From assembly GCF_020510705.1 (NCBI RefSeq), contig NZ_CP075184.1, positions 1-64,000 on the forward strand: a stretch of DNA of 64,000 nucleotides. The letters are read 5' to 3'. Below the pieces are notes generated by a model. That model made no database searches, was not told the origin of the DNA, and was given only the letters and a program-made list of their open reading frames with translations. This stretch comes from Acidovorax radicis (GTDB lineage: Bacteria > Pseudomonadota > Gammaproteobacteria > Burkholderiales > Burkholderiaceae_C). Made by a program: the position numbers and the translations under genes. Positions 5,415-28,765 of this stretch are shown piece by piece. How positions within the stretch are numbered: position 1 is the first letter of the stretch; each line of letters starts with the position of its first letter.

Positions 5415-5416
<2 letters not shown>

Positions 5417-5419
5417 GCG
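5415..5419. repeat. Target site duplication, left copy (GAGCG)
   Basis: Five bases immediately before the left transposon end. The first two are the last two bases of the gyrB TGA stop codon. Identical to 28761-28765. Confidence 0.93.
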
Positions 5420-5538
5420 TGTAGGTTCTCAAAAATATTGCAAAAATTCTCATAATTTGCAAAAAGTCTAGCTCCATTGGGTCTTGCGTATGTTGCAGGT
5501 CTCATTGATCTTGCAAATATTCTCATTACTTGCAAATT
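5420..5538 (+). repeat. Transposon left end with four TnsB-site-like repeats
   Basis: The terminus TGTAGGTTCTCA is followed by repeats of the form TTCTCA-N4 to N6-TTGCAAA at 5426-5445, 5447-5465, 5500-5518 (first T replaced by G) and 5520-5538, all in the same orientation. Reiterated sites at each end are the known arrangement for TnsB binding in Tn7-like elements. Assignment as TnsB sites is inferred. Confidence 0.85.
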
Positions 5539-5710
5539 TCGCTAAGAACTCAATGGTGCTTTCCGCCCATAAGTGACTCGCGACCCTCTATGGCAGGGCG
5601 TGGGCGGAAGTCGCAGGCCTGTTGCTATCCTTGTTGTCACTCGAGGTGCGCTTTTCAGGCACGAACTGCACAGCCACCGTCGGAGAAGCTTTTCGCTGCA
5701 GGAATACCCC
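5539..5710. other. Non-coding stretch inside left transposon end
   Basis: No supported gene or clear structure was seen between the end repeats and the ImmA-like gene. It probably represents sub-terminal transposon sequence. Confidence 0.4.
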
Positions 5711-6301
5711 TTACTCAAACAATGCCGTTTGCTTTTGAGTAGCGCTACCCAGAGTGCTCTCGATAATTTTGAGTTGCTGCAAGCGGATTAACAGCGCCTG
5801 GACACTGACTTTCAGCTCCTTTGCCAGGCCTAGCGTCTGCTCGTCATCAGAAATGTCACGGATCAGCGCCTCGGCCGCTATCACCGAAGCAGGCATGAGT
5901 AGAGCAGCAGAAAACATGTTCGCTTCGCGCTCTTCTTGGGGTGTTGTTGTAGAGCCGCCAGTTGTGTACGCAGCAGATGTGGCCTCTCCAACGCGTTGAT
6001 AAACACGCAAGTCCTTATCCACGATCATTCTGTCGCCTGTATCGTGAAGGATCAGGTGCCCAAACTCATGCCCAATGGTGAAACGCTGTCGGGGTTCAGG
6101 ATGTTCGTCATTAACGAAAATATGTCGCTCTGCACCACGAACAACAAGGGCGCCTGAAACATCCGCCTCCATCTTTTCGTAGTGAATTTCTGCGTTGCAA
6201 AACCGTGCAATCTTGAACAGATCTACAGGCGTGCTCATAACACGCGCACCTCGCAAAAGTTCTTGCGCACGCTGTTCGATGACTTTTGGTGTGTGTGACA
6301 T
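5711..6301 (-). CDS. ImmA/IrrE-family metallopeptidase
   Basis: 196-aa zinc peptidase of the ImmA/IrrE family, which typically cleaves or antagonises a partner XRE repressor. The zinc motif HEFGHLILH and a downstream EREANMFSAALLMP helix (third ligand Glu) are present, giving the gluzincin arrangement. It lies 8 bp downstream of and co-directional with an XRE gene, the usual repressor/antirepressor pair. By analogy with ICEBs1 and phage modules it could derepress the adjacent cargo or transposition functions; that role is inferred. It is the first cargo gene from the gyrB-proximal end. Confidence 0.88.
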   Translation of the reverse strand: MSHTPKVIEQRAQELLRGARVMSTPVDLFKIARFCNAEIHYEKMEADVSGALVVRGAERHIFVNDEHPEPRQRFTIGHEFGHLILHDTGDRMIVDKDLRVYQRVGEATSAAYTTGGSTTTPQEEREANMFSAALLMPASVIAAEALIRDISDDEQTLGLAKELKVSVQALLIRLQQLKIIESTLGSATQKQTALFE

Positions 6302-6309
6302 TTGCTTTC

Positions 6310-6654
6310 TCAGGATGGCGTCAATACGCGCTCGATGGCGCTTCCTAACAATGGACTACCCGCAGAGCTCAACTGAGCTTTGATCGTCGCACCGTCAATC
6401 TCGGATTCACGACGTTCAGCGGACTCATCCACGTTTAATGACTCCAAGAGTTTTGTTGCACTCACATCGAGAGCGCCGCAGATGCGGAACAAAACGTGGA
6501 GCGGGACCTTCTGCACTCCCTTCTCGATGTTGGTAATCGAGGTACGTTCCAGCCCGACCTGCTCCGCCAGTTGTGCTTGCGTGAACTCAGCAAGCAACCG
6601 ACGAGAACGAATGATCTCGCCTAAGACAACGTACAGACGGCTCTCTTCAATCAC
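6310..6654 (-). CDS. XRE-family helix-turn-helix regulator
   Basis: 114-aa protein with a Cro/C1-type HTH (about residues 12-66, containing FTQAQLAEQVGLERTSITNIE). It lies directly upstream of the ImmA-like gene on the same strand, and the pair probably forms a two-gene operon. The divergent 390-bp space to the Ubl operon contains a good promoter, so this regulator may control that operon, itself, or both (inference). The C-terminal tail of about 45 residues has no recognised domain. Confidence 0.85.
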   Translation of the reverse strand: MIEESRLYVVLGEIIRSRRLLAEFTQAQLAEQVGLERTSITNIEKGVQKVPLHVLFRICGALDVSATKLLESLNVDESAERRESEIDGATIKAQLSSAGSPLLGSAIERVLTPS

Positions 6655-6756
6655 GTCAGTGACTCCAGTGAAATCAAAATCTAGCGAATGCAGCCAATCA
6701 TGTCAATGAGGCTGACAAAGTCAATGGATGGCACAAATGTTTTAGTGTTTGCCAGA

Positions 6757-6785
6757 TTGACACAGCAGCGCGCCCAGCATAAGAT
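6757..6785 (+). promoter_or_regulatory. Predicted sigma-70 promoter of the Ubl operon
   Basis: TTGACA (6757-6762), a 17-bp spacer, then TAAGAT (6780-6785), reading toward the ubiquitin-like operon that starts at 7044. A near-consensus -35 with ideal spacing makes this the best promoter in the 390-bp divergent region. Confidence 0.6.
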
Positions 6786-6842
6786 GCCAACATATTGCAC
6801 TTTCTAATATTTGTGCGATTTATTGACAAACAAGGAGGCGCT

Positions 6843-6892
6843 ATGAACATCACCGAATAAAACAAGGGGTCAAACCAGTGAAGGTTGACCCC
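6843..6892 (+). other. Five-codon mini-ORF plus hairpin ahead of the Ubl operon
   Basis: A strong AAGGAGG (6832-6838) precedes ATG 6843, which opens a five-codon reading frame (MNITE, stop at 6858-6860). Directly after it, GGGGTCAA (6866-6873) pairs with TTGACCCC (6885-6892). The stem is extended by an AACC/GGTT pairing with a bulge. This could be a leader with a regulatory hairpin, an operator, or a truncated gene start. No T-run follows, so it is not a classical terminator. Confidence 0.4.
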
Positions 6893-7043
6893 CTGAGTGA
6901 ACTCGCGCTAGAGCGCTCGTCCGGTGTGGAAGCCACGAGTGTCGCGTTTAGTACCTGAGGCTGTCAACTTTTCATTGCAAAGCTAGAGCGGAATGTGGGA
7001 ATTTTCCACATGACAAATACTGTTTGAATGAAAGGAAGTCAAC

Positions 7044-8132
7044 ATGGCTCCGAATGAAATCGCTCGCCCCGGCCAGGGGCAAACCGTTGAAGTGTGCGGC
7101 CTTGACCTGGAGCTGCGCACCGTCGAACTTCAAGATCAAACGCCTACGGGAACGCAGATCGCACTGGCAGCCGGGTTCAATCCCGAGCCCAATGTCTGTG
7201 TTTTGCAGTGGTTGGACCGGGGCGTGGAGGACATCAGTCCAACTGAAGTAGCTCGGCTGAAAGAAGGCCAGAACCGTTTCATCGTGTGCGAGAGCGATGG
7301 CCTGGAGCGCCTGACGGTGGATGGGCTGCGGTACGACTGGCCGGTTCCAACCGTCTCCGTGACCACCCTACGTAAGTTGGCGCATCTCCCACGCTCCAAG
7401 AGCTTCTACCTTGAGCACGAGCGCCAAGAAGACCGCCTTCTGGAAGATGACGAAATCGTCCGATTGGGTGAAGCTGGGGTGGAACAGCTGTTCACCCGCT
7501 GGGTCTTGAAGATTGGAGACAGCTTCTTCGGCTTCCGGACCCCGACAGTAAAGGTGCGTGATGCCTTGACCGTCGCGGGCATCAACCTCGATGCGGGATG
7601 GCAGATCTTCCTGAAGGTGAAGGATCAGCCCAAACAAACCATGGAGTTGGACGACGTCATTGATCTGACCACGCCCGGCATCGAGAAGCTGCGTGTGTCT
7701 CCAAAGGAAGTCAACAACGGCGAGGGGGTGCACCCGCTGCGGCAGTTCCGGCTGCTCGATGGCGATGAGCGCCACTTGGATACCCACTACCCGGGGTGGG
7801 TGGCCGTGCTGGAGGGAAGTGCCCGGTGGGTCATCCTGCTTAAGTACCAACTTCCTGAAGGCTTCTCGCCGGCGGTGGTGCAGATGGCGCTGAACATCCC
7901 GCCCACGTACCCTATGTCGGAAGTGGACATGTTTTACCTGTTCCCCGCTGCATCGCTCAACAGCGGTGTCACTATCCCCGCCACCGAAGCGCAGATTTCC
8001 GTACAAGGGCTGACCTTCCAGCGCTGGTCACGCCATCGTGGTTCGGCATCGCAGTGGCGACCTGGAGTCGACAGCATGGTCACGCATCTTGCCCTCGTAG
8101 AGGCTGCATTGCTGAACGAGGTGCAGAAATGA
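7044..8132 (+). CDS. Multi-ubiquitin-domain protein fused to an E2-like (Prok-E2_E) domain
   Basis: 362 aa. Roughly residues 12-78, 80-150 and 151-222 read as three beta-grasp multiubiquitin-type repeats; the last runs through the WVLKIGDSFFGF segment to VIDLTTPGIEKLRVSPKE. Residues 230-362 resemble the bacterial E2 family E (YPMSEVDMFYLFPA, then WSRH and WRPGVDSMVTHL). No cysteine occurs in this E2-like part, so a thioester E2 mechanism cannot be assumed. The start at ATG 7044 has AAAGGAAG 6 bp upstream. The stop overlaps the start of the JAB-E1 gene, giving a coupled operon with E1, deubiquitinase-like and DUF6527 partners. Such sets are predicted, and some reported, to conjugate Ubl proteins in phage defence. 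Confidence 0.85.
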   Translation: MAPNEIARPGQGQTVEVCGLDLELRTVELQDQTPTGTQIALAAGFNPEPNVCVLQWLDRGVEDISPTEVARLKEGQNRFIVCESDGLERLTVDGLRYDWPVPTVSVTTLRKLAHLPRSKSFYLEHERQEDRLLEDDEIVRLGEAGVEQLFTRWVLKIGDSFFGFRTPTVKVRDALTVAGINLDAGWQIFLKVKDQPKQTMELDDVIDLTTPGIEKLRVSPKEVNNGEGVHPLRQFRLLDGDERHLDTHYPGWVAVLEGSARWVILLKYQLPEGFSPAVVQMALNIPPTYPMSEVDMFYLFPAASLNSGVTIPATEAQISVQGLTFQRWSRHRGSASQWRPGVDSMVTHLALVEAALLNEVQK

Positions 8133-9511
8133 TGCCGGCCTCGTGTCTGACGCTTACGCATGAGGTGTATGCGCTTGCGCGCAAGCACCTCTTTCCTGGC
8201 GATGGACTCGAGGCTGCGGCGATCCTGGTGTGCTCCAGGGTCGCTGGTCCTCGTACCCGTCTACTCGCCCACGACATCGTGCTGGTACCCCACGCAGAAT
8301 GCCAGCGCGCAGCTGACTTTCTGCGCTGGCCCGGGGCTTCCATCGAGGATGGAATCGACAAGGCCGACGCAGCGGGGCACAGTCTCATCCTTCTGCACTC
8401 GCATCCAGGGGACCTCTTCGGATTCTCCCGGCTGGACGATCAAAGTGATCACGATGTCATCCCCTGCATCTACCATGCCGTGGATAGTCTGCACGGCTCC
8501 GCCATCATGGTGTCGTCAGGGGCAATGCTGGCCAGGATCTACTCGAAAGACATGCAGGTGAGCGTGCTCGAGGTGGTCACGATGGCCCATCACGACCTGC
8601 GTTTCTGGTGGGCGGATGGCGAATTCTCCACGCGGCCAATGGCCTTCACCAGCGAGTCCCGCCGCGAGCTTAGAAGGCTGTCGGCGTGTGTGGTGGGGGT
8701 GTCCGGCACTGGATCAATCGTCGCAGAACAGTTGGCCCGACTAGGCTTTGGCCAGGTCGTTTTGGTCGACTTTGATCGCGTTGAGCACAAGAATCTGAAC
8801 CGAATCTTGAATTCGACGCTGCTCGACGCCAAATCAAATGTACTGAAGGTAGAGTCAATTCGGCGAGCGATTGATTCCTATCGAGGCCCTGGCGTCGCCC
8901 GTGTTGTGCCGGAGACAATCCTTTCGCGCAGCGCGGTCTTGGAAGCGTGCCAGGCCGACGTGATCTTCAGTTGCGTGGATTCTCAAGAAGGCCGACAGAT
9001 CGTCGATCTGATCGCAGCTTTCTTCTTGATGCCCGCTTTTGATGTGGGCGTCACCATCCCCACGCGGAAGAACAAAAGCGGCGTGGCGATTCTCGACGTG
9101 TGTGCGCGTGTCGATTACGTGCGGCCTGGTGGGCCCATGCTCTACGAGCGTGGCGTGTATACCCAACAAGGCGTCCGTGCCGAGCAATTGAAGCGAACAG
9201 ATCCTGAGCAGTTCAAGGCCCAGATCGCGGACGGGTACATTCCCGGTGCGAATGAGGAGGCCCCATCGGTAATAGCGCTCAACATGAGCGCCTCAGCCGA
9301 CACCGTGCTCGAATTCATCGCCCGCATCCACCCATTTCGGCACGATGGCAATTCAGGCCATGCTCGCCGTAATCGATCTCTGGCTGCTGCAGAAGAGGAG
9401 TTTTTGGCGGAGAGCAGCTTTAAATCCGATCCATTTCCGCTGCTAGGGCACGGAGCTCGCGAGCCCTTGCTTGGTATGCCGCAACTCACTTCGCAGGCCG
9501 AGGTGCGGTAA
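8129..9511 (+). CDS. JAB/MPN isopeptidase-ThiF E1 fusion protein
   Basis: 460 aa. The N-terminal JAB domain has the JAMM motif: H90-S-H92-P, then S100 and D103, a deubiquitinase-type zinc site. The C-terminal half is a ThiF/E1 adenylation domain with a Rossmann GVSGTGSIVAEQLARLG near 190 and VDFDRVEHKNLNR. The region where canonical E1s place a catalytic Cys reads EEAPSVIALNMS, offering Ser380 instead. ATG 8129 overlaps the upstream TGA (ATGA). It activates and may also trim or remove the Ubl encoded upstream. The Ser at the crossover position and the Cys-free E2 domain together hint at oxyester chemistry (inference). Confidence 0.87.
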   Translation: MMPASCLTLTHEVYALARKHLFPGDGLEAAAILVCSRVAGPRTRLLAHDIVLVPHAECQRAADFLRWPGASIEDGIDKADAAGHSLILLHSHPGDLFGFSRLDDQSDHDVIPCIYHAVDSLHGSAIMVSSGAMLARIYSKDMQVSVLEVVTMAHHDLRFWWADGEFSTRPMAFTSESRRELRRLSACVVGVSGTGSIVAEQLARLGFGQVVLVDFDRVEHKNLNRILNSTLLDAKSNVLKVESIRRAIDSYRGPGVARVVPETILSRSAVLEACQADVIFSCVDSQEGRQIVDLIAAFFLMPAFDVGVTIPTRKNKSGVAILDVCARVDYVRPGGPMLYERGVYTQQGVRAEQLKRTDPEQFKAQIADGYIPGANEEAPSVIALNMSASADTVLEFIARIHPFRHDGNSGHARRNRSLAAAEEEFLAESSFKSDPFPLLGHGAREPLLGMPQLTSQAEVR

Positions 9512-9531
9512 CTTCAGCTTTGAGAACGTTT

Positions 9532-9897
9532 ATGCGAACCTTTACGCGGCGCATCATCAACTGGTATAGCGCATGGTGGGCCAGGCTGTGGAAAGGCCCC
9601 CCAGAGGCTCGGAGCCTTATCGTAGTCTCTGGCGACAGTCTTCCCAAGGAGCTACCCGACCGAGATCTTGTTCTTGCCCGAGACGGTGGCGAGGATTGGT
9701 GTGTCGGAATGAAGTGCCCCTGTGGCTGTGGACGCATTCTTGAGCTTCTGTTGATTCCTGAGGCCCACCCTCGCTGGAAACTGACGGTTGACTCGGGTGG
9801 CCGACCTACCTTGCATCCTTCTGTCTGGGTAAAGGACGGTTGCCGCTCTCATTTCTGGTTGAGACAGGGCCAAATAGAGTGGTGTCGCGACGACTAA
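9532..9897 (+). CDS. DUF6527-family protein of the Ubl operon
   Basis: 121-aa protein with paired metal-ligand-like clusters, KCPCGCG near residue 63 and DGCRSHFWL, plus HPSVW and a final IEWC. This is the pattern of DUF6527, which co-occurs with bacterial multi-ubiquitin/E1/E2 genes and which I recall being proposed as a Ubl-processing peptidase (recollection, unverified). It follows the E1 gene by 20 bp. ATG 9532 is preferred; an in-frame TTG at 9520 would add four residues. It completes a three-gene operon with no further gene on this strand before the convergent avcD module. Confidence 0.75.
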   Translation: MRTFTRRIINWYSAWWARLWKGPPEARSLIVVSGDSLPKELPDRDLVLARDGGEDWCVGMKCPCGCGRILELLLIPEAHPRWKLTVDSGGRPTLHPSVWVKDGCRSHFWLRQGQIEWCRDD

Positions 9898-10090
9898 ACG
9901 CGTGTGAATCGATCACCCATTCACTTTTGAAGGCTAGCTTGGAATCGATGAAAAAGGTGAACAAGCAGTGCCAGCTACCCTAGGGTGTTGGATGCCCTCC
10001 GGGGCTGTCAAAGAAAGCTGAATCCGAATTTTCTCGGCCGATCCTCAGGACCGCACCAATTTCAAAGGTGCAACACCCTCAAGAAGAAAA

Positions 10091-10357: not shown

Positions 10358-11917
10358 CTATTGTAGAGACTTAATAGCGATGCCTTCAAGCGAAGAAACT
10401 GCTTCCATCGTGACGGCGGTCACTGGTCGAGCGATCTTCTTTCGCATCCTTCCTGTATGACCGTCTTTGCGGTCGTTGCCTTCAAAAAACTTGAGGAAGC
10501 GCGACGGCGCAACACCATCGAACGGCATGATCCTTACCTTAAAGGTGTTCGTTTCCTGCTCAGTTATCGCATCTTCATGAAGCTTAGTCGCCAAGCTCTT
10601 GCGGTAAGGCTCCAGGAAGTAGACCTCACGCACACCCGCCGCAACAATGTGTCGTGCACATGAATGGCATGGGTAGGTAGTGACGAATAGCTTTCCTCCG
10701 CGTACCTTCGAACCATGCTGCGCTCCCGCGTTTAAGAGAGCATGCATCTCAGCATGAACTGCGCGAGAGAATTCAATCAGACTGCGAAGCTGAGAATCGT
10801 GTCGAATGAGTTTCACGGCTTTTTCGGCCTTGTCTCTATCAACTATGCCCTCGGCGATCATCTTATCGATGACGGTATTTGCAATCAAATCCTTCTCTTC
10901 ATCGTTAAAGCATTTTCCTCCGTCCTTGTTGTAGCAACGATGATCTTCATCAGGCGACGCGCGCAAGTCTTGAATCTCATAGAGACCGCCAAACGCTCGT
11001 GGTACATCATTCCATCCGGTGGCGATCAACTCCCCGCTCGCGCTTGTCAATGCAGCTCCCACCTGGCGTGACAGGCAAGCCGAGTTCATGGCAGCGGACG
11101 ATGCAGCGTACATGGCGCGCTCTGCAACCGTTGGCGTGATGATTCTGGTACCAAGCATCAAGTCCAGGAAACGACGAACGCGTGATGTCAGTTGCGAATC
11201 GGTACCTGTGTCGACCCTCAGGAAAAAGTCCGAATGCGGGAAGGTGTCTTGTACTTGCTGTCCGTGATCCTGCTCTTCGCCGGAATCACGGTTGATTAGC
11301 GTGTGGATTTGCTCCGGTCTAGAAATTTTCTTCTGAAGTCGAGCAATTCGCTGTTCGATTGGGGCATATACGCCGACGATATGCAGCATGTCACCGTAAA
11401 CGAAACGCAGAAGTTCGAGTTCTTCTTCGTTCTTAATCGAATCAATAATGTGACAGGTCCATTCGATCGGTGTAGGGATAACAACGTCGCCCGACTCTTC
11501 AACGAAAAGTTTTGGCTGGTGAGTGAAATCAGCTTTTTCCTCACTCTTCTTCAAACGCGCAAGAGAAATTCGACGAATGGCGCGCTGGACCAGGACGGCA
11601 CGCCCATGCGCTTCGCGGAGATCGTTTCCCGCTTTGATGAGTGCTGCGATGTCTGCTTCGGGGGGTAGACCAACCATCTCCCGAATTTCACTGCTGAGCT
11701 TGATGATCTCTACCTGTTTGTATCCGTAGTCCTGGCCGCGAAGCAATTCTTGAAAGATCTTAGCCACGTCATGTAGCGGCGTACCCAACGGCCCACACAA
11801 AGCTACAACGATTTCAGGAGTATGGGTGCCCTTAATACGATCTTTGGCAGTTTTTTCATTTTGATCGTTGGCAGCACCGGTTTCAGGTACCGCATTCAGC
11901 GTAGGTACTGCACTCAT
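10358..11917 (-). CDS. avcD: Anti-phage dCTP deaminase (AvcD/DCD type)
   Basis: 519 aa. The N-terminal P-loop-kinase-like domain (IVVALCGPLGTPLHDVAK near residues 35-53) is fused to a zinc cytidine/dCMP-deaminase domain. The zinc site is HAE at 388-390 (His388 ligand, Glu390 proton shuttle) plus PCHSC with Cys417 and Cys420. This architecture and length match AvcD/DCD proteins, which deaminate dCTP during infection and starve phage of nucleotides. In the known AvcID system an RNA, AvcI, encoded just upstream keeps the enzyme inactive. Here 400 bp upstream lack a supported gene. The catalytic set is intact. Confidence 0.88.
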   Translation of the reverse strand: MSAVPTLNAVPETGAANDQNEKTAKDRIKGTHTPEIVVALCGPLGTPLHDVAKIFQELLRGQDYGYKQVEIIKLSSEIREMVGLPPEADIAALIKAGNDLREAHGRAVLVQRAIRRISLARLKKSEEKADFTHQPKLFVEESGDVVIPTPIEWTCHIIDSIKNEEELELLRFVYGDMLHIVGVYAPIEQRIARLQKKISRPEQIHTLINRDSGEEQDHGQQVQDTFPHSDFFLRVDTGTDSQLTSRVRRFLDLMLGTRIITPTVAERAMYAASSAAMNSACLSRQVGAALTSASGELIATGWNDVPRAFGGLYEIQDLRASPDEDHRCYNKDGGKCFNDEEKDLIANTVIDKMIAEGIVDRDKAEKAVKLIRHDSQLRSLIEFSRAVHAEMHALLNAGAQHGSKVRGGKLFVTTYPCHSCARHIVAAGVREVYFLEPYRKSLATKLHEDAITEQETNTFKVRIMPFDGVAPSRFLKFFEGNDRKDGHTGRMRKKIARPVTAVTMEAVSSLEGIAIKSLQ

Positions 11918-13184: not shown

Positions 13185-13217
13185 AGGGATTCCAAGAGTT
13201 GAGTGGAGGAAAACCAA

Positions 13218-20293: not shown

Positions 20294-22245
20294 GCTTGCT
20301 TGTCACCCCGGAGCGCATGGCTGATGAGGGACCACTTGGTTTTCGTTTCCGGCTGGCAGCAGCCAATCTCTTGTCCATTCGAGATCTTGCGGAGCTCGAA
20401 ACCAGTGGTGAGGTTGATCCGGTACAGGGCCGCGCCCCAAATCTGGCTGTCGGCGGCGAGGAAACATTCACCCCATGGGTGCGAAGATGGTCAAGGTTCT
20501 GCCCAGAATGTTTGAACCGCAGGCGATGCTGGTCGATCGGCTGGGAAATTTTGTTTGCAGATGCATGTTCGGCATGCGGTTTTTGGTTGGTGGACACCTG
20601 CAGCATCTGTAGCGCCCAAATACCGTGGCATCGGGACAACCTACTGCAATGCATTTGCGGCAACCACCTTACGGCGGAACAGGGCCGTACAGCACCAGTC
20701 TCCGTATTCGGCCTCAGCCGAGCACTTCAAAACGTAGCCCAAGGAACAGCCCCCATCAATATGCCGGTGTTCCATGGCTTGAGCCTGGGGCAATGCGTGC
20801 GACTTGTTCGATTACTGGGCACTTATGGCAACGGCCGTGACTCCGGGGTACCTCAGAAGGTGCTCAACATCGACAAACTAACTGTTTCTTGGCCCATCAC
20901 GAGCATGGCCGCCGAAATTCTTGCCGCTTGGCCCGCTGGGCTCCATACCCTGTTGGGAAATTTGCAAATGCAAGGAAACGCCGAAGAGAAAGGCAGCCTT
21001 CCCAAGGCATTCAGCGGCTTCTATGCGGCACTCTATCGCGGATTCAAGGACGCCGAATTCGACTTTCTCCGCACCGACTTCGAGAACTATGTAGCGGCGC
21101 ATTGGACAGGCGCCATCGGGAAACGTAACCGACGCCTTGATGCATCGGTATTGAAAGGCATGGCCTGGATTCCTGCTACCCATGCCTGTCGAATACTCCA
21201 CGTTTCTCGACGCCGCCTCACTGATTTGATCCAGGATGGAAGCGTGCAGGGTGAGGAACGTATGACGGCCGGGCACCGCAAGTTCGTCGTTGTGAAAAGG
21301 GCCGATGTCGAAAAGCTGGCCTTAACCCTAGACGATGGAATCTCCCTCCTAGATGTTTCCATTCGGCTCGGGCTGAAACGGCAACGACTGCTTGCGCTTC
21401 TACCCATTATTTGTCCCCAGGCAAAGAAGCTTGGCGTGCAGGGGTGCCCATGGGCGATCCCTAGCAACTGGATCGAATGCTGGGAAACACTGATTCAAAA
21501 CCAGGTTCAGGTCGTCTCCGCCGATTTAGGAACTACCACATTGGGACACTTGATCCGATACTGGCCTTGGACCACCGAGCAGGTCGGCCTTCTGCTGGCG
21601 GATATTTACAACGGTTCTCTTGTACCGGTGGGATCCGTCAAGTTCAGCAACGGTGTAGGTGCATTGGTACTTTGCGTCGCTCAGCTCGATGAGTGGTTCA
21701 CGGGCAAGCAGCGGCAAGCATGTCCCGAGTTGACGATTCCTGAGGTGGCCCTTCGACTTGGTGTCAAGCAAGAGGTTGTCTATGCACTTGTCCGGTCAGG
21801 TCTGGTTACAGCATCCCTGCGGCGTATTGGTCGCCGCTCGGTACAAAAGATCGGAGTCGCTGCGCTGCAGACATTTGAACAGCGATACATCCTGGGCCGA
21901 GACGTTGCACAGTCCCTCGGCCGATCGCCGCGCGCAATTGCCGATTTTTTGTTGGCGGCAGGGATACGACCGATCGCTGGACCAGGGGTCGATCGCTGCA
22001 GGCAACTTATTTATGACCGGGAAGTTATTGTCGAATGTCTACGCCGCAATGGACTCGAAAGACCAGCCTCCCCTGCTTCTGTGCCAGTGCGCTATCGGTG
22101 CGCGCACGCTTGTGAAGATCTTGCGCATTCCGGCCAGCAAAGCCCGCCACTCCAAGCCGAAAAAACCACCGATTCCGGTGCCGGACTTGCCCGTTATTCC
22201 GATTCAGAAGATCCACTCATTCCGATTTTCAATGGCTGTCATTAA
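20290..22245 (+). CDS. tnsD: TnsD-like TniQ protein with C-terminal HTH array
   Basis: 651 aa. The TniQ-like N-terminus includes a zinc region (FCPECLNRRRCW, CSACGFWLVDTC, CICG). Residues from about 295 on contain at least four HTH-like modules: ACRILHVSRRRLTDLI, DVSIRLGLKRQRLLALL, PEVALRLGVKQEVVYALV and DVAQSLGRSPRAIADFLL. That organisation fits a TnsD-type protein that reads a fixed chromosomal attachment site. Since the element sits at the end of gyrB, the conserved gyrB 3' coding sequence is the probable binding site (inference). Confidence 0.82.
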   Translation: MSLLVTPERMADEGPLGFRFRLAAANLLSIRDLAELETSGEVDPVQGRAPNLAVGGEETFTPWVRRWSRFCPECLNRRRCWSIGWEILFADACSACGFWLVDTCSICSAQIPWHRDNLLQCICGNHLTAEQGRTAPVSVFGLSRALQNVAQGTAPINMPVFHGLSLGQCVRLVRLLGTYGNGRDSGVPQKVLNIDKLTVSWPITSMAAEILAAWPAGLHTLLGNLQMQGNAEEKGSLPKAFSGFYAALYRGFKDAEFDFLRTDFENYVAAHWTGAIGKRNRRLDASVLKGMAWIPATHACRILHVSRRRLTDLIQDGSVQGEERMTAGHRKFVVVKRADVEKLALTLDDGISLLDVSIRLGLKRQRLLALLPIICPQAKKLGVQGCPWAIPSNWIECWETLIQNQVQVVSADLGTTTLGHLIRYWPWTTEQVGLLLADIYNGSLVPVGSVKFSNGVGALVLCVAQLDEWFTGKQRQACPELTIPEVALRLGVKQEVVYALVRSGLVTASLRRIGRRSVQKIGVAALQTFEQRYILGRDVAQSLGRSPRAIADFLLAAGIRPIAGPGVDRCRQLIYDREVIVECLRRNGLERPASPASVPVRYRCAHACEDLAHSGQQSPPLQAEKTTDSGAGLARYSDSEDPLIPIFNGCH

Positions 22246-22273: not shown

Positions 22274-22762
22274 ATGAGTACACCAGCTCCACCGACTAAT
22301 TTCCAGTCTTGGCTTGACTATGCAGTCGCAACCATGGACGCGCGAGGAGCATACCTGGACCGCCTCTTTAGTGAGGAGGGCACTCCATCTCAGGACGATA
22401 TCCGGGCTGCAGCCGAGGAGGAGCTTGATCATCTCAAGAAAAAGGCAGTCATGCCGTGGATCAGTATCCTGGAGAACTGGCAGATTGCTCTTTCAAAGAG
22501 GCTGAGCCGCTCTGCCGCAGACATTGTTGAAGACAACCTTTTGGCGGCAGATTTTTCAAATGACAGTGTTCACGTCCAATTTAAGGATGGCTCTGATCTG
22601 ACATTTCGGCGTGCGTTTTACCTAGGCGAAACACCCGCTGATGGGGCCATTCATCGAGTAGCAGTGTTTACAGAGCAATGCGGGTATCACGAGTTCTGGA
22701 TTGGCCCAGGTGATCAAATTTCGGCAACTTCAATATCCGGCGCTTCGTATAAATCCACTTAA
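22274..22762 (+). CDS. Unknown small protein downstream of the tns operon
   Basis: 162 aa, family not recognised. A helical N-terminal half (NFQSWLDYAVATMDARGAYL, then EEELDHLKKKAV) is followed by a beta-rich half (VHVQFKDGSDLTFRRAFYLG, then GYHEFWIGPGDQI). It lies 28 bp after the tnsD-like gene with AGAGG 6 bp before ATG 22274, so it is likely on the same transcript. It and the next two frames form a compact trio of small genes, perhaps an accessory or defence module. Confidence 0.7.
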   Translation: MSTPAPPTNFQSWLDYAVATMDARGAYLDRLFSEEGTPSQDDIRAAAEEELDHLKKKAVMPWISILENWQIALSKRLSRSAADIVEDNLLAADFSNDSVHVQFKDGSDLTFRRAFYLGETPADGAIHRVAVFTEQCGYHEFWIGPGDQISATSISGASYKST

Positions 22763-22773
22763 GAAGATTTTGC

Positions 22774-23031
22774 ATGGAACTCAATGGCCCAGTGGGTCTT
22801 GACTTTGGAAGTCCCGATTTCGACAAACGGATGGACGAAGACGCAAAAAAATTTGTGTCAGATTTGGCCCAGTAGATCCAACAACGCAGTGGCGCAAACG
22901 TGGCTTTGCAACTGGAGGAGGATGAGGCATCTTCCTCCCTGGAGCTGCATCCTAGAAGACGGCATGTAGGTGAACAAGTGCAAAATGCGGCTGGAGTTGC
23001 CATGGACTGGGACGGTCTGTTGGTGTCCTAG
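22774..23031 (+). pseudogene. Small gene interrupted by an in-frame amber stop
   Basis: A single reading frame from ATG 22774 to the stop at 23029-23031 is continuous except for TAG at 22873-22875 (codon 34), directly after a CAG codon. Before it the product reads DFGSPDFDKRMDEDAKKFVS; after it, IQQRSGANVALQLEEDEASS and so on for 51 more codons. The coding character on both sides suggests a CAG-to-TAG nonsense change, giving an 84-residue protein if repaired. It sits 11 bp after the 22274 gene and 23 bp before the next. No family recognised. Confidence 0.5.
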
Positions 23032-23054
23032 TCGCCAATCGCAAGGAGGCTTCA

Positions 23055-23435
23055 ATGCAGGTTCAGTTTCTGAACGATCGTTTAGCGCCTACCGTTGAGT
23101 CCCAGCCCTCAGTGGAACTCCATCACTGGCGCATCCTGAAGCGGGGCAATGGGGATCTGCATCTGGCCGCGCAGATGGATTCGGGATCTCTGCGGGTGAC
23201 TTCCAAGCTGCAATGTATGGAGCTTTCGCGTGGCATTATCAGAACGGATTCGGGGCGTAGCTATCAGCTATGCGCCCAGCCTGAAGACGATGAGGTACTC
23301 CATGCGATCATTCAGCTCAACGCCCTGATAAGCCTGCACATGATCTCTGGAGACGTGAGTCAGGTCATCTGGGATGCCATTAATGCAGGAGCGTGGCCAG
23401 TTGGCGGCACACCGCTCCTGCTGCCTCCGCAGTGA
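23055..23435 (+). CDS. Unknown small protein, third of a trio
   Basis: 126 aa, no family recognised. An excellent ribosome site (AAGGAGG) lies 6-8 bp before ATG 23055. Predicted beta strands (LHHWRILKRGNGDLHLAAQM, then LRVTSKLQCMELSRGII) precede a hydrophobic helix (LHAIIQLNALISLHMISG). It is co-directional with the two preceding small genes. The 249 bp to the convergent DUF4238 gene hold only a dubious 60-codon frame at 23481. Confidence 0.7.
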   Translation: MQVQFLNDRLAPTVESQPSVELHHWRILKRGNGDLHLAAQMDSGSLRVTSKLQCMELSRGIIRTDSGRSYQLCAQPEDDEVLHAIIQLNALISLHMISGDVSQVIWDAINAGAWPVGGTPLLLPPQ

Positions 23436-23684
23436 TTCGGCGCTTAGCCACTCAGCTACCTTGGTGAATGTCCAGACGCCATGCAGCCCATACCCAAGTT
23501 ACTAAGCGGGGAAGAGCTGTGGCGCGACAAATCTATCCACTTTTGCCAAGCAGCGCGAGGTCCAGTATCGCAGCGGTTGCTGTCCGTGGGCGCCTTCTTC
23601 TGTGTTCACCCTAATGGTAAAAAGCAGTCATTGCCAATGACAACCCGAGCGTTTCGGACTTAGACCACGCAACGTTCAACCGCC

Positions 23685-25790
23685 TTAGGAATCGCGCAGC
23701 ATATTGCTCGAATGACTGTGCTGTCTCCGCTCGGGAAATCTCGCACCACTGATCAGCTTTGTGAGCATAGCTAGCTCTTGGTCATTTCCCACATCCACTC
23801 GAATCTGGTTGCCCGCTGGCGACAAGTAAAACCCGAAGCCCCAAAGGATCCGCTCAGCGTGGACAGTCAAGAACTCTAGTTCGGCGAGGCTCGCCCAGGT
23901 ATCCCTGGCGACAAAGTACGAGTCCATATCGCGGGATAAGAGGTAGAACCAGTTCAAGAGACCCGCTGCTTCAAGTTTCTCGGCGCATTTCCCAGATTCC
24001 CAGTAAGTTGGATTGACATGGCGTAGTACGCAGCCAGACGCCGCTGTTGTAAAGAGCGCTTCTGTAAATACAGCAAGGGTGAGTAGTAGCTTGTCCACAT
24101 CGGGCTCAGCAAGGTACTGCTCCCGAACTCGGGAGAGTCCCTCTAGGCTCCAGCTCATAGCCTGGGACTGGAGCGCATCTGCCATCTGGAACTCCTGTGT
24201 CCCCATTTTTTGGGGAGATGACAGGCGTGCGCCAAAGTAGTGGGACGCCGCCAATTGCGCCATGCCGAGCAGTAGATTCTCCAGCTGACCTCGCGACTCT
24301 TGCACCTCCTGTTGCGACACGCTTCCCGCAAAAAAGTGCATGTATACGGCACGGCCAAGATGATGGCGCACAAGAGCGCTTGCGGAACGAGCGTGCTCGG
24401 CCTTGGCGTTGACCATGAGTTGTGCGAGTTCCGTGGGCACGAATACTTCGCAGACAAAGCCTTCAGGCGTGAAACTCGATTGGCATGCTCCGAATTGCAC
24501 TTGCTGCTGCCCGTACTCGTTGAGTGGCACGCCACGCTGCGTCAGAGCTGCGGCGACATCCGGGACGACAACGACTGCGCGCAGTTGGTCCAGATACGGC
24601 GCTAACTCAGGCGCGCGCATTTGCGCCCGAATTGCGGCCTCAACGGCACCGTTTTTGGGGCTCCCGGGCAAGAACTCAACAATCGGAACCAAAGATACCA
24701 GTCTTGCTGCCGTCGGTTCACTTCTTTCGGGGTAGGGGGAAGGCGCATCAAACGCATCCTTCTCTAACAGCCTCTGGGAGTGGTTCGACACCGCGTGCCC
24801 AATCTGCTGCGCGAGCCCGACCATCTCCATGTCGTTGCGAGAGCTGATGAAAAAGTCCAGCGAGGACTGTGCTAACAACGAATTGAGTTTTTTCCAGTCA
24901 ATGACTACATCTGTTCGGCTGCCAACAAGCACCCTGGATGAACTAACTGGCATCAGTACGCTCGCCAGAGTCTCGTCGTCGGCCAGGGTGTAGGGTATGG
25001 GGCGTGAAAGATCAGCATGGTCGCTGGCAAGCGCCAAGCAATCAGGCAATATCACATGTGAGTTCTCGGGCACCAAAACGAGCTTCCAGTGCAAGGACTT
25101 AAGTAGCTCAGTGCGCTTCAGCGGAACAATTTCCCTTTCCAGCATCCGGATGTGTCCGTTTTCAATAGCACTGGACGTGACCCCAACAAAGCGTTCTATC
25201 TGCATGTCGAACATGCCTGCCATGCTCGTGAAGTCAGCATGAAAGTGTTCCCGGAAGCGAAACCTCACCATCCTGCCAAGTCGGTGCCGTGCAGTTTCTG
25301 GGAGCATGGCCACATCCTCGGCAAGACTCTCATTAATAGTTTTTTCGATCATTGAGTCTTTTGAGACAGAGTCAATGCCCATGTACGCGCGAGCCGACTC
25401 ATCGGTGGCCAGGACCTGCGACATGTGATCTAGAAACTTCTTTGTTATTTCGCTGAAAGCGCCTCGCACAAATGCAGCCCTAATGGAAAGGTGGGACACG
25501 ACCGAAGCTGCGGCCTCGGGTTCTACTTGCCCTAGAGGTGCGTTTCGCAGTCCGTCTACAGCCGGTGTAAGGACGTCCTTCTCATACCGAGTAATGATGT
25601 TGTCGAGTGCATCCTCGTCAAGCGAAGGTTCGGAGTAGAAGTGCCGCTGCGCGGCAACGCCTTCTGTGGATGACTTGTAGGCCGCTTGTCCTTTGCGGAA
25701 TACCCACACTTGGGAGTGCTTACCCGACTTCGACGCTTCGAAGCCTCGCTGCAGAAGTTGTGGGATGAAATGTTGCTTGATTCCGGCCAT
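23685..25790 (-). CDS. DUF4238-family protein, large form
   Basis: 701 aa. The N-terminus has the DUF4238 signature: KQHFIPQLLQRGF, then VWVFRKG and HFYSEPSLDE. Further on, HVILPDCLALASD is typical of the family's central domain. DUF4238 proteins are usually about 300-400 aa, so the C-terminal 350 residues are an added domain I do not recognise. ATG 25790 (MAGIKQHF) is preferred over an in-frame TTG at 25808. It is transcribed opposite to the tns genes. The biochemical role is unknown; its location fits a defence cargo gene. Confidence 0.75.
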   Translation of the reverse strand: MAGIKQHFIPQLLQRGFEASKSGKHSQVWVFRKGQAAYKSSTEGVAAQRHFYSEPSLDEDALDNIITRYEKDVLTPAVDGLRNAPLGQVEPEAAASVVSHLSIRAAFVRGAFSEITKKFLDHMSQVLATDESARAYMGIDSVSKDSMIEKTINESLAEDVAMLPETARHRLGRMVRFRFREHFHADFTSMAGMFDMQIERFVGVTSSAIENGHIRMLEREIVPLKRTELLKSLHWKLVLVPENSHVILPDCLALASDHADLSRPIPYTLADDETLASVLMPVSSSRVLVGSRTDVVIDWKKLNSLLAQSSLDFFISSRNDMEMVGLAQQIGHAVSNHSQRLLEKDAFDAPSPYPERSEPTAARLVSLVPIVEFLPGSPKNGAVEAAIRAQMRAPELAPYLDQLRAVVVVPDVAAALTQRGVPLNEYGQQQVQFGACQSSFTPEGFVCEVFVPTELAQLMVNAKAEHARSASALVRHHLGRAVYMHFFAGSVSQQEVQESRGQLENLLLGMAQLAASHYFGARLSSPQKMGTQEFQMADALQSQAMSWSLEGLSRVREQYLAEPDVDKLLLTLAVFTEALFTTAASGCVLRHVNPTYWESGKCAEKLEAAGLLNWFYLLSRDMDSYFVARDTWASLAELEFLTVHAERILWGFGFYLSPAGNQIRVDVGNDQELAMLTKLISGARFPERRQHSHSSNMLRDS

Positions 25791-26009
25791 ATGCGTGCTT
25801 CGATTCAATTCCTGTGATGATCACCAAACTTGTTTCTCAGTATTGCCTTCGTTAGAATAGCGCTGCACACGTCGGTGCGCGCTGCTCACCATAGGCAGAC
25901 CCGGTCCGCTGGGACGACGCAAGATCAAGCCATCTCGAACCATTTGCACAGCCCAACCTCAATGGAGTGCAGCAGTGAGCACTGTGAATCTCCTGGTACG
26001 GAGCATGCA

Positions 26010-26813
26010 ATGGAAATTTTCCCCATTACCTATACACGCGCTCAAAAGATCGAGCGCGAAGCCAAGTCGCGCCGAAAATCTGATCCCAGCCTTGGTCGGC
26101 AAGATTCTCTGAATCTTGTTGCCCGGGGGCATGGCTTTCTACATTGGCACCATGCTTGTCTTTGCCGAGAGCGGGGGCGACAAGAGCCAAAGGCGCAGCC
26201 TATGACACGCCGAATGCAAAGCATCCTGACCGAGGCTCAAACTCGCTTCCCGGCGGCTGAGGCCACTGTAGAGGCCTTTGCCAAGGGGCTGGTCATTGCT
26301 GTAGACGTGGCCGATGCTGGACGATTGGGAGCAACACCGGATTACTGTGAGGTCTCTGATGGCTGGTATATCGCGGCGGCGGACATTTGGCCTGCGGTAC
26401 TGCAAGGTCGGTATGTCGAACTACCTAACGAGGATGACTCTCGACGAGACTTGGAGGTGATGGATGATTTCACTTGTCTACGCTTCTTCCATGTCTCAGC
26501 ATCAGGTCATCAGTCGCTCAAGAGCGCCTTGGAGTCGATTGCCGCGCCCGTGCAGTGGTGTTGGGTCGGCGGCTCTGCGACGCGTGTGACCCGAGAGCCA
26601 TGGGTGGGTCAAGCCCGCTCCCGATTGGATCGTTTTCGCCATCTGATCGACGCGGTGAGCATGTCCTTCGTCGTGAACGAAGAGCCTGACATCGCGGACG
26701 CTAGTGCGTTCATGTTTGAAAAGCAGACACCGCTCGGGCAGCTTCGATACCAATCCATTTCCGTGGCTGTGAGAACGTCCTGGGGAGAAGCCCAACGCGT
26801 GAAAGTCCGATAG
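26010..26813 (+). CDS. Unknown cargo protein, divergent from DUF4238 gene
   Basis: 267 aa. A basic N-terminal helix (TYTRAQKIEREAKSRRK) is followed by LNLVARGHGFLHWHHACL. This resembles short N-terminal segments seen in many mobile-element proteins. The remainder alternates strands and helices without a motif I can name. ATG 26010 is chosen because CGGAG lies 6 bp upstream; the longer frame from 25830 has an improbable leader. A strong terminator follows 19 bp after the stop, so it is a single-gene unit. Confidence 0.6.
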   Translation: MEIFPITYTRAQKIEREAKSRRKSDPSLGRQDSLNLVARGHGFLHWHHACLCRERGRQEPKAQPMTRRMQSILTEAQTRFPAAEATVEAFAKGLVIAVDVADAGRLGATPDYCEVSDGWYIAAADIWPAVLQGRYVELPNEDDSRRDLEVMDDFTCLRFFHVSASGHQSLKSALESIAAPVQWCWVGGSATRVTREPWVGQARSRLDRFRHLIDAVSMSFVVNEEPDIADASAFMFEKQTPLGQLRYQSISVAVRTSWGEAQRVKVR

Positions 26814-26831
26814 AGCTCTCGATGGCTTTGG

Positions 26832-26866
26832 AAAACTGAGGCACTGAACGGTGCCTCAGTTTTTCG
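26832..26866 (+). terminator. Intrinsic terminator
   Basis: AAAACTGAGGCAC (26832-26844) pairs perfectly with GTGCCTCAGTTTT (26851-26863) around a 6-nt loop, followed by more T. It ends the 26010-26813 transcript and works in both orientations. Confidence 0.88.
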
Positions 26867-27091
26867 GTGCATGTCTTGTTCAAGAGTGCGTAGGAATTCT
26901 GGTACCCCGCAAGCGGCTGTTTCATGGCGCAAAGCTGCCACGCTGTTCATTCCGGCGATTGACTGCACCAACCTGGAGCTGCCATTCCGAAGCGCCGTTT
27001 CGCAGCGAATGCAGTGATCCGCTCCCGCGTAGCCGAACCCGTACTATCGGCCAAATGCTGTCGTTCGGTGCGAGACCGCAAGCGGCGGGTC

Positions 27092-27467
27092 TAGGATGAA
27101 TGCGAACACGCTCTGCACGCCAAATCCCAGAAGCTGCAGTCCATTCCGCTGAATGACTCTGGCTTGTGGGACTTGGCGCAGATGGAGGCCAAAGGCAGCT
27201 CCCCCTATCTGTTCCCAAAACCGATAGCAGGCAACACCTACACAGCGATCACCCGGGCGTGATATCAGCTGCATGAAAAGGCCAGCGCCAATGTTCGCAT
27301 CCATGATCTGAGGAATACCTACGCCTAATTGCTGTCACTAGCGGGCGCAGCTTGTACGACGTTCCGCAGATACTCGGGCATAGACCCCGAGCCGACGATA
27401 TGGCACGCCCATCTCTCGGCCAAGGCGGTGAACGCGGGATCGATGATCATCACGAAAGCCGCGTAAT
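27092..27467 (+). pseudogene. Tyrosine recombinase (integrase) C-terminal relic
   Basis: Translated on the plus strand, the region gives SQKLQSIPLNDSGLWDLAQ, then YLFPKPIAGNTYTAITRA with a stop. It continues with QLHEKASANVRIHDLRNTYA, another stop, and ends WHAHLSAKAVNAGSMIITKA. IHDLRNTYA is the HxLR box and the final HAHLSAK matches the region before the catalytic Tyr, which is itself missing. At least two in-frame stops make it non-functional. The 225 bp before it (26867-27091) hold nothing else I can identify. It is probably debris of an integrative element captured by the transposon. Confidence 0.7.
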
Positions 27468-27531
27468 AGCGGTGCGACGTCCTGGTTTCATCTCTGGGTC
27501 TGGGGCGCTCTTTATTTAGTTTGGAGGAGTA

Positions 27532-28368
27532 ATGCAGAAAACCGACGAAGCGCATCAAAAGACAGTACAGATTGCGGATGCAAGTAGGGCCTCAGGCTAT
27601 GCTGAAAGCAGGACGGGAAGAGATGGAAGTGTATTGGCGCAGCTTGATCCCGCTCCAGATCAAGGCTCTCCCACTCCCTCGGAAAGAGACCCCAAGCTTC
27701 AACTTCTTTTAACCGTGCTTCCGGTTCTCTCCGCAGCGCTGTACCTGGTAGGCACGATGTATCAGGAGAGCTACTTGTTGGCCTTTGGTGTAGATAACTC
27801 CATGTTCCCACTGCCGCTCGATCGGGTATGGTTATACGGCTTCACATCTTTGTTGTCATTTGGTCTCGCACCAATGTTGATGGGTGTAATGATTGTGTTG
27901 CTGATCGTGATGGCGGTGATCATTGCCGCAGCTCTTTCTTCCTTCCCGAAGGTTCAGCGCGGTCAAGCTGTTTTTGCGCGATGCGCACGTAAACGGCTCG
28001 CTTCAATTCAAAATAAGCCTGCGCCTGCCATGGTGGCATTGGTAGACAAAGGGGGAGTGCTCTACTTTTATGTCGCGGGGTTTTTCTTTATTGTCGTAGC
28101 GCTTGTGTCCGCGGTACTTCTTTCGTCGCAGGCAGGAGCCAAGGCTGCCGAAAGAGACAAGGCCCGATGGGCAGAAGGGGCTCAGCGAACAGCGGTTGCC
28201 AGCGCCAAAGGTGAGCCGTCGTTTACTGCCTTCCAAGTAACCTGCGGGGCGATTCATTGTGCTTTTTGGACCGGCAGCGAAACGCGTATCTTGAGGCACG
28301 AGGAGGGGGTGAATCTGCGCGTCTATCCAGCAAAGAGGACTGTCGACCAGCGAAAGCGATCGGAGTAG
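27532..28368 (+). CDS. Membrane protein of unknown function (cargo)
   Basis: 278 aa. A disordered N-terminus of about 55 residues is followed by three hydrophobic spans (TVLPVLSAALYLVGTMY, LMGVMIVLLIVMAVIIAAAL and GVLYFYVAGFFFIVVALVSA). A C-terminal soluble tail holds two Cys residues (VTCGAIHCAFW). GGAGGAG 3 bp before ATG 27532 is a strong ribosome site. It lies between the integrase relic and the right transposon end and has no close partner, so its role is unknown. Confidence 0.7.
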   Translation: MQKTDEAHQKTVQIADASRASGYAESRTGRDGSVLAQLDPAPDQGSPTPSERDPKLQLLLTVLPVLSAALYLVGTMYQESYLLAFGVDNSMFPLPLDRVWLYGFTSLLSFGLAPMLMGVMIVLLIVMAVIIAAALSSFPKVQRGQAVFARCARKRLASIQNKPAPAMVALVDKGGVLYFYVAGFFFIVVALVSAVLLSSQAGAKAAERDKARWAEGAQRTAVASAKGEPSFTAFQVTCGAIHCAFWTGSETRILRHEEGVNLRVYPAKRTVDQRKRSE

Positions 28369-28656
28369 CCAAGTTGGGCAGGTGGCGCTGAGCGCGCATC
28401 GGCCATTTACGGACGGCGTGTAGAGAATGGGCGCCGGCAAAAAATCCATGGTCCAAATTGCATGCTAAAAGTCTCCCAGACAAGCACCTCAGCAAGAGAT
28501 AAACCAACCGACTACCGGTTGCGGATTCAACGGTTCGATAGCAGTACGATCATCTTCAGCGGTTAGCTGATCACGACTGATCGGTTGAAGTGATCAAACG
28601 CACCGGGGTTCGCCCCCGTATCGTACGGCGACGGAGGACTTTCTGAGCATGTAGGA
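28369..28656. other. Non-coding stretch before right transposon end
   Basis: No supported gene between the last cargo gene and the end repeats. Confidence 0.4.
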
Positions 28657-28760
28657 TTTTTTCAATGATTCTGAGAACGGCGACATTCCTATTCTTAGAA
28701 TCCGTGCAGAAGTTGTTGATTTTTCGTCCCTCACTTTTGCAATCATTCTGAGAACCTACA
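28657..28760 (-). repeat. Transposon right end with terminal repeats
   Basis: Read on the minus strand from 28760: TGTAGGTTCTCA, six bases, then TTGCAAAA, matching the left terminus. A second copy, GTTCTCAGAATCATTGAAAA, lies at 28659-28678, and a weaker one (ATTCTAAGAAT) near 28691. Fewer sites than the left end, as expected for asymmetric Tn7-like ends. Confidence 0.85.
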
Positions 28761-28765
28761 GAGCG
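28761..28765. repeat. Target site duplication, right copy (GAGCG)
   Basis: Identical to 5415-5419 and directly abuts the right terminus. Confidence 0.93.

What the first reader, a model, noticed from the sequence alone, without database searches (positions are those of the whole stretch)
5415..28765. Complete Tn7-like transposon defined to the base by inverted ends and a 5-bp target duplication
TGTAGGTTCTCA at 5420 and its inverse ending at 28760, with GAGCG on both sides, delimit the element exactly. TnsA, TnsB (DD35E), TnsC and two TniQ proteins are all intact, so it may still be mobile.
Basis: seen in the sequence. Interest (0 to 1): 0.85.

Follow-up and report, generated by a model that had tools for sequence, protein, structure and literature searches.

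The report
Tn7-like transposon that homes beside gyrB
This is a complete 23-kb Tn7-like jumping element, carrying anti-phage genes, that sits just behind the DNA gyrase gene gyrB; relatives in many other bacteria sit at the same spot, so gyrB looks like their landing site, and I found no description of it in the papers I could search.

Summary
In detail: a 23,341-bp Tn7-like element (5420-28760) with matching TGTAGGTTCTCA ends, a GAGCG duplication on both sides, and intact-looking TnsA, TnsB, TnsC and two TniQ proteins. The element starts 3 nt after the gyrB stop codon. A genome scan with the long TniQ (TniQ2, 651 aa) gave 29 loci. In 21 the gene lies on the gyrB contig, downstream, same strand; in 7 more the gyrB end carries an element terminus. 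In 13 of 27 loci examined the far end carries the same 5-bp duplication; in 4 others a far end was seen without it. TniQ2 is modelled as a TniQ core plus about five winged helices. Distant sisters (about 25% identity) sit behind lysS (two) and a histidine-phosphatase gene (two). Some elements stack in tandem, and 16 of 27 gyrB ends have a terminator-like hairpin inside the element. My reading: TniQ2 is a TnsD-type selector for the gyrB 3' end, a new attachment site for a known kind of transposon. No transposition was tested; no exact empty site was found.

The parts
2801..5416 (+). gyrB; its last codons and stop are the proposed attachment site
   Evidence: Pfam DNA_gyraseB and DNA_gyraseB_C; element end 3 nt after the stop
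5415..5419 (.). target-site duplication GAGCG, gyrB side
5420..5540 (.). gyrB-proximal end of the element, TGTAGGTTCTCA plus four TnsB-site-like repeats (5426-5444, 5447-5463, 5520-5536 by pattern; 5500-5517 by eye)
5711..6654 (-). cargo: IrrE-type peptidase (5711-6301) and Xre-type regulator (6310-6654)
7044..9897 (+). cargo: ubiquitin-like operon: multiubiquitin-E2 (7044-8132), JAB-E1/ThiF (8054-9511), DUF6527 (9520-9897)
   Evidence: PADLOC E1-E2 for the second gene only
10358..11917 (-). cargo: anti-phage dCTP deaminase
   Evidence: NF041025 3.2e-139, above its cut-off; PADLOC dCTPase 1.1e-166
12318..14270 (.). cargo: CoiA-like protein (12318-13217 -) and an unknown protein with hydrophobic stretches by eye (13203-14270 +)
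14834..15256 (+). Xre-type regulator upstream of tnsA
15523..16170 (+). tnsA
   Evidence: PF08722 4.8e-15
16085..18166 (+). tnsB, DDE transposase D289, D374, E410 (real start probably 16151)
   Evidence: start inferred from the G057 relative
18006..19226 (+). tnsC, AAA ATPase (real start probably near 18141, inferred)
   Evidence: TniB 4.1e-33; Walker A and B
19223..20293 (+). tniQ1, short TniQ (356 aa)
   Evidence: PF06527 2.8e-12
20290..22245 (+). tniQ2, long TnsD-type TniQ (651 aa): TniQ core about 1-280 plus about five winged-HTH modules 286-586; proposed gyrB selector
22274..28368 (.). second cargo block: small ORFs, DUF4238 protein (23685-25808 -), ORFs 25830-26813 + and 27532-28368 +
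28640..28760 (.). gyrB-distal end, inverse of TGTAGGTTCTCA at 28749-28760 plus a second TnsB-like site (28659-28677)
28761..28765 (.). target-site duplication GAGCG, far side
28797..28823 (+). hairpin followed by a T-rich tail, possibly the original gyrB terminator, now 23 kb from gyrB

Best explanation
A Tn7-like cut-and-paste transposon. TnsB, with TnsA, recognises and cuts the ends, and TnsC links them to the target. The long TniQ2 acts as a TnsD-type selector: its row of winged-helix modules reads the last codons of gyrB and its TniQ core recruits TnsC, so that the element inserts in one orientation, most often 3 nt after the stop codon, making a 5-bp duplication and leaving GyrB intact. 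The anatomy, the site and the link with the TniQ2 family across genera are shown by sequence. DNA reading by TniQ2, recruitment of TnsC and present mobility are inferred from Tn7 and other TnsD systems.
For: Ends and duplication. A scan with a TniQ2 alignment gave 29 loci. In 7 of the other 8 genomes the gyrB end carries a TGT[AC]GG terminus; the eighth is a Bacteroidota MAG, unresolved. The far end with the identical 5-bp duplication was found in 13 of 27 loci examined, including 4 where the assembly had split element and gyrB. Over 91 gyrB ends, a TGT[AC]GG terminus within 16 nt of the stop was found by script in 33 of 39 with TniQ2 at gyrB, in 9 of 10 with TniQ2 on another contig, and in 3 of 42 without TniQ2 at gyrB; the commonest distance was 3 nt, 20 of 42. 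Control: 12 genus genomes carry more distant TnsB-type transposases; in 12 of 12 the transposase is on another contig (8) or over 200 kb from gyrB (4), and 11 of 12 gyrB ends lack such a terminus. Family and order samples mostly agree. Sister TniQ2 proteins sit behind lysS (two) or a histidine-phosphatase gene (two), so the site goes with the TniQ2 type. A second TniQ was seen in only 7 of 29 loci. The fold model gives a TniQ core plus winged helices.
Against: No binding or transposition was tested. The exact empty site was not found in 47 genus genomes. In four loci (G065, G068, G074, G080) a far end was seen next to TniQ2 whose following bases do not match the gyrB-side duplication; stacked elements could explain this but were not resolved. 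For G057, and for G015 (listed as G060), no far end was found in the sequence held. Seven TniQ2-profile hits scoring between 1e-20 and 1e-85 lie away from gyrB: G413, G115, G744, G688, both G825 copies and the main G495 copy, so the wider family is not gyrB-specific. G009 and G013 carry this end type at gyrB without any TniQ2 match. The tree is a quick one with several long branches. Of the five modelled winged helices only two (292-348, 478-534) had structural matches.
Confidence: 0.87

Rival explanations
1. The short TniQ1, alone or with TniQ2, selects gyrB, and TniQ2 serves another route.
For: Both genes are in the operon; TniQ1 has the TniQ domain.
Against: A separate TniQ1-like gene was matched in only 4 of 29 related loci and a second TniQ-type match in 3 more, while all 29 have TniQ2, by which they were found (a diverged TniQ1 or one off the contig would be missed). 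The site changes with TniQ2 subclade. TniQ1 is only 356 aa.
Confidence: 0.07
2. The region behind gyrB is just a tolerant hotspot in which any mobile DNA accumulates.
For: Downstream DNA differs among the genus genomes printed.
Against: The insertion point is nearly constant (+3 nt in 20 of 42 counted, range 1 to 12), with one orientation and 5-bp duplications matching in 13 of 27. Elements with distant TnsB and without this TniQ2 were not found there.
Confidence: 0.03
3. The element is an immobile relic kept for its defence cargo (this can be true together with the best explanation of its past).
For: No movement was observed and no empty site found.
Against: The core genes are open with their catalytic motifs and both ends and the duplication are exact.
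Confidence: 0.2

Closest known systems
Tn7 (TnsABC plus TnsD, attTn7 behind glmS)
   Same: TnsA, TnsB, TnsC and a TniQ-core selector; insertion just behind a conserved gene (abstract of PMC2918618 as shown in the listing: TnsD binds the end of the glmS coding region; single orientation and 5-bp duplication of Tn7 are recalled)
   Different: Site is gyrB, not glmS. The TniQ2 tail is modelled as a row of MerR/Xis-like winged helices. A large cargo block lies between the gyrB-side end and tnsA. No TnsE was recognised.
Tn7017, type I-F3 CRISPR-associated transposon with a parE-targeting TniQ
   Same: Dual TniQ; one TniQ directs insertion beside parE, the gene of another topoisomerase B subunit (PMC11406308, passages seen; the kinship of ParE and GyrB is recalled)
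   Different: Target there is parE; here gyrB. No CRISPR-Cas was recognised here. Whether the two selectors are related was not tested.
Tn6022 with TnsF, comM site
   Same: Tn7-like core with a short TniQ (PMC10293859, section 11 read)
   Different: There a separate TnsF reads comM; here the long TniQ2 appears to read gyrB.
Dual TniQ-TnsD loci surveyed by Faure et al. 2023
   Same: 998 dual loci, usually one protein over 400 aa and one smaller; TnsD tails made of several HTH domains (PMC10293859, sections 10 and 11 read)
   Different: The words gyrase and gyr do not occur in its main text; its supplements were not available.

Membership tests
Tn7-like transposons | TnsA-type endonuclease | tested here: met
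   PF08722 4.8e-15; candidate catalytic motifs found
Tn7-like transposons | TnsB DDE transposase | tested here: met
   rve match below the Pfam cut-off, but D289, D374, E410 with 35 residues between the last two
Tn7-like transposons | TnsC AAA ATPase | tested here: met
   TniB 4.1e-33
Tn7-like transposons | TniQ-family selector | tested here: met
   TniQ1 PF06527; TniQ2 profile matches solved TniQ 7u5d 2.6e-11 and, weakly, TnsD 8v32 0.0036
Tn7-like transposons | TGT...ACA ends with several transposase sites, 5-bp duplication | tested here: met
Tn7-like transposons | Insertion behind a conserved gene, fixed orientation | tested here: met
TnsD-type target selector | TniQ core plus long C-terminal DNA-binding extension | tested here: met
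   model with about five winged HTH modules, mean pLDDT 80; TniQ core and two Xis/MerR-type modules matched
TnsD-type target selector | Binds the attachment site and recruits TnsC | not testable with these tools
   needs biochemistry
Tn7 sensu stricto | attTn7 behind glmS | tested here: not met
   element lies behind gyrB
CRISPR-associated transposon | Cas effector genes or CRISPR array in the element | tested here: not met
   no Cas family among the 19 element ORFs that I chose for Pfam, no Rfam match, no CRISPR-like array among the repeats shown
Tn7 TnsE pathway | TnsE protein | tested here: inconclusive
   no TnsE match, but four of the ORFs after tniQ2 have no Pfam family

The most novel reading that the evidence does not exclude
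TniQ2 belongs to a broad family of modular selectors that read the 3' ends of conserved genes through a row of about five winged helices. gyrB is the main site; subfamilies were re-aimed to lysS and to a histidine-phosphatase gene. Different elements pile up in tandem at gyrB, without exclusion between diverged elements, and many bring their own terminator to keep gyrB transcription insulated.
Probability: 0.5. Interest if true: 0.75.

Novelty: new variant of a known kind. Interest (0 to 1): 0.62.

Why it matters
It adds an essential, conserved gene to the list of Tn7-like landing sites, with natural variants apparently re-aimed to two other genes. That makes the question of how a TnsD-type protein reads its site testable by swapping modules between the gyrB, lysS and phosphatase types, and it suggests a protein-guided insertion site behind gyrB in Betaproteobacteria. 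It may also explain how defence genes come to lie behind gyrB in some genomes; only the cargo of this one element was examined here.

Tried and rejected
Empty site: the joined flanks were searched in 47 genus genomes. 34 match, this genome's two flanks included, but no match crosses the junction; the right flank alone gave no gyrB-linked match in the relatives either.

A parE link: in the 12 genomes searched, parE is on another contig or far from the TnsB or TniQ hits, so no parE-homing sister was found among them.

Terminator in this element: none was found by pattern scan within 5380-5760, although 16 of 27 gyrB ends with elements (26 genomes) have a terminator-like hairpin within 220 nt of the stop, against 1.2 expected from shuffles (own simple script; G075, with only 99 nt of sequence, was left out).

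Far ends: in 14 of 27 loci no far end with the matching duplication was found; some loci end at a contig end. In G065, G068, G074 and G080 a far end without the matching duplication was seen.

Fold search: no match covers the whole TniQ2; the best cover the TniQ core or single winged-helix modules.

Literature: searches in the held open-access library. The listings shown hold no paper that, by title and abstract start, names gyrB as a Tn7-like site, but they are partial (20 of 3,551 papers shown, 20 of 27, 30 of 135) and I opened only five relevant papers. lysS as a Tn7 site: three papers listed, none on this subject by title and abstract start. Subscription papers and supplements were not searched. 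A search for the ubiquitin-like cargo gave nothing useful in 8 rows of 1,188.
Full report
WHAT IS THERE. The window starts with dnaA, dnaN and gyrB. Three bases after the gyrB stop begins TGTAGGTTCTCA (5420); its inverse ends at 28760; GAGCG stands on both sides. The arms pair over 26 nt at 88%. Repeated TTCTCA-N-TTGCAAA sites lie at both ends. The element has lower G+C than the rest of the window (0.54 against 0.65). Its core operon is tnsA, tnsB, tnsC, tniQ1, tniQ2, with D289, D374 and E410 in TnsB and Walker motifs in TnsC. The cargo includes two known or likely defence modules: a ubiquitin-like operon (multiubiquitin-E2, JAB-E1, DUF6527) and an anti-phage dCTP deaminase.

THE SITE. I asked whether the position behind gyrB is chance. 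Among 47 genus genomes, full-length TniQ2 relatives occur in this genome, G015 and G057, and both relatives have a TGTAGGTT end 4-5 nt behind the gyrB stop although their TnsB is only about 45% identical to the one here. The fourth genus hit, G053, matched only 67 residues. A scan of genome contigs with a TniQ2 alignment gave 29 loci, mostly Betaproteobacteria plus Pseudomonas. gyrB was located in all 29 genomes. In 7 more the gyrB end carries a terminus but the assembly is split (G060, G070, G071, G072, G075, G077, G086; G060 has the same gyrB place as G015 and is taken as the same genome). The remaining one is a Bacteroidota MAG (G067), whose TniQ2 contig is only 13 kb long and holds no gyrB; unresolved. 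In 13 of 27 loci examined, the far end plus the identical 5-bp duplication was found in sequence already held, including G070, G071, G072 and G077, which ties those split cases to gyrB (the G072 duplication is AAAAA and so weak). G067 and G086 were left out of that count. Of the 14 misses, G065, G068, G074 and G080 do show a far end beside TniQ2 but with other bases after it.

CONTROLS. Among 47 genus genomes, 15 have a TnsB match; 3 are the elements with this kind of TniQ2, and the other 12 have more distant transposases (25-33% identity). In all 12, gyrB was located: the transposase is on another contig in 8 (G013, G016, G042, G045, G053, G055, G056, G058) and over 200 kb away on the same contig in 4 (G007, G044, G054, and G038, which has a second copy on another contig). 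Their gyrB ends lack a TGT[AC]GG terminus in 11 of 12, G013 being the exception. In a family sample of 399 genomes, 12 matched the TniQ2 profile at E up to 1e-20: this genome, G015 and 8 others lie at gyrB by contig or terminus; G413 and G115 do not, and their gyrB ends carry no terminus. In an order sample of 399, 18 genomes matched; of the 10 with E below 1e-90 (this one included), all are at gyrB. Of the other 8, G583, G623 and one partial copy in G495 are at gyrB; G825 (two copies), G744, G688 and the main copy in G495 are not; G616 and G545 have TniQ2 on other contigs, and G616 has a terminus at gyrB while G545 has none. Samples overlap: G739 has the same gyrB place as G066 and G800 the same as G080, and I counted each once. 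Over 91 gyrB ends, the script found TGT[AC]GG within 16 nt of the stop in 33 of 39 with TniQ2 at gyrB, 9 of 10 with TniQ2 on another contig (9 genomes, G086 has two gyrB genes) and 3 of 42 others. Of the six misses, G083 is a frame error of the script (its end is visible), four show TGTAGAG or TGTTG-type ends, and G353 shows none clearly. Two of the three positives among the 42 (G009, G013) have the full end sequence of this element type but no TniQ2 match; the third (G006) is only six bases.

RE-AIMED SISTERS. The TniQ2-family operons in G825 (one copy) and G744 follow a class II aminoacyl-tRNA synthetase gene of 502 aa (Pfam tRNA-synt_2 and anticodon domain; I call it lysS from its size and first residues, from memory), and those in G825 (other copy) and G495 follow a histidine-phosphatase gene. 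The ends of these four were not mapped. On a quick tree of 50 TniQ2-family proteins the two lysS rows and the two phosphatase rows each form a supported pair among gyrB-type rows, and the site changes at least 3 times. Four partial rows were left out. Long branches make the deep order uncertain.

HOW IT PROBABLY WORKS. TniQ2 matches solved TniQ and TnsD proteins in its core. The AlphaFold model (53 sequences, mean pLDDT 80, pTM 0.57) shows the core and then, by my reading of its secondary structure, about five winged-helix modules; the modules at 292-348 and 478-534 resemble MerR-type, phage Xis and BldC proteins, the others were not matched. This is the expected build of a TnsD-type reader (PMC10293859, section 10). 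In Tn7, TnsD binds the end of the glmS coding region (abstract of PMC2918618 as listed). I infer that TniQ2 binds the last codons of gyrB and recruits TnsC.

TWO FURTHER PATTERNS. First, stacking: in 6 of the 13 elements with both ends (G064, G066, G070, G072, G079, G082) the far duplication is followed directly by another TGT[AC]GG, and in 2 more (G061, G084) such a terminus overlaps the duplication by 3 bases, as if a newer element had landed between gyrB and an older one. Second, terminators: 16 of 27 gyrB ends with elements have a terminator-like hairpin within 220 nt behind the gyrB stop, inside the element (1.2 expected). This element has none there; a hairpin with a T-rich tail, possibly the original gyrB terminator, lies beyond its far end at 28797-28823.

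WHAT IS KNOWN. The open-access library gives glmS, comM, yhiN and parE (PMC10201428, one passage seen), tRNA genes, and guide-RNA sites guaC, yciA, ffs and rsmJ (PMC11406308, passages seen) as Tn7-like or CAST sites. The main text of the largest selector survey I found has no mention of gyrase (PMC10293859, outline, passages, sections 10 and 11), nor has that of the cargo survey (PMC8649781, passages). PMC12452197 uses gyrB only for host phylogeny and strain identity (passages). Searches: the longer listings cut at 20 to 30 rows. Subscription papers and supplements could not be checked, so an earlier mention is possible. The parE site of Tn7017 is the nearest parallel.

LIMITS. No experiment; no exact empty site; the selector role of TniQ2 rests on association and structure prediction; stacked elements were not resolved one by one; present mobility is inferred.

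Noticed in passing
window 5500-5545: A second pair of TnsB-like sites inside the gyrB-side end is by eye nearly identical to the outermost end sequence of the relatives in G057, G015, G009, G013 and G275, and may be a recombined end of another element.
   Followed up: partly
L041:1209-1484 (G005): About 1.1 kb behind gyrB in one genus relative lies a second, partial gyrB C-terminal piece (75% identity, residues about 775-866, with a stop inside).
   Followed up: no
L048 (G009) and L050 (G013): The same end type stands 3 nt behind gyrB, yet no TniQ2 or close TnsB match was found in either genome; possible relics or cargo-only elements. In G013 a CATAAG/CGAAA type of repeat follows closely.
   Followed up: partly
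L169 (G044) and L170 (G045): Behind gyrB stands TGTCAAA with repeats like those of the TGTCGG-type ends in other genomes; possibly a worn element end that the TGT[AC]GG script does not count.
   Followed up: no
L038 (G002), L177 (G364), L183 (G303): A different end family, TGTAGAGC with CATAAG and GAAA repeats, stands behind gyrB; G364 and G303 have distant TniQ2 relatives on the gyrB contig, G002 shows none in 40 kb.
   Followed up: partly
window 14241-14267 and 15541-15567: The end of ORF 13203-14270 encodes VTRRGKRFR, much like the start of TnsA (VTRSGKRFR), 23 of 27 bases alike; possibly a trace of an older tnsA junction.
   Followed up: no
L196:10402-15869: A conjugative Pseudomonas putida plasmid carries tnsABC and a TniQ2 relative (28% identity), which fits plasmids as carriers between hosts.
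   Followed up: partly
L188 (G453): Only a fragment of TniQ2 was found about 3.5 kb behind gyrB, with a TGTCGG terminus near the gyrB stop and no TnsABC match within the 7 kb held: probably a decayed element.
   Followed up: partly
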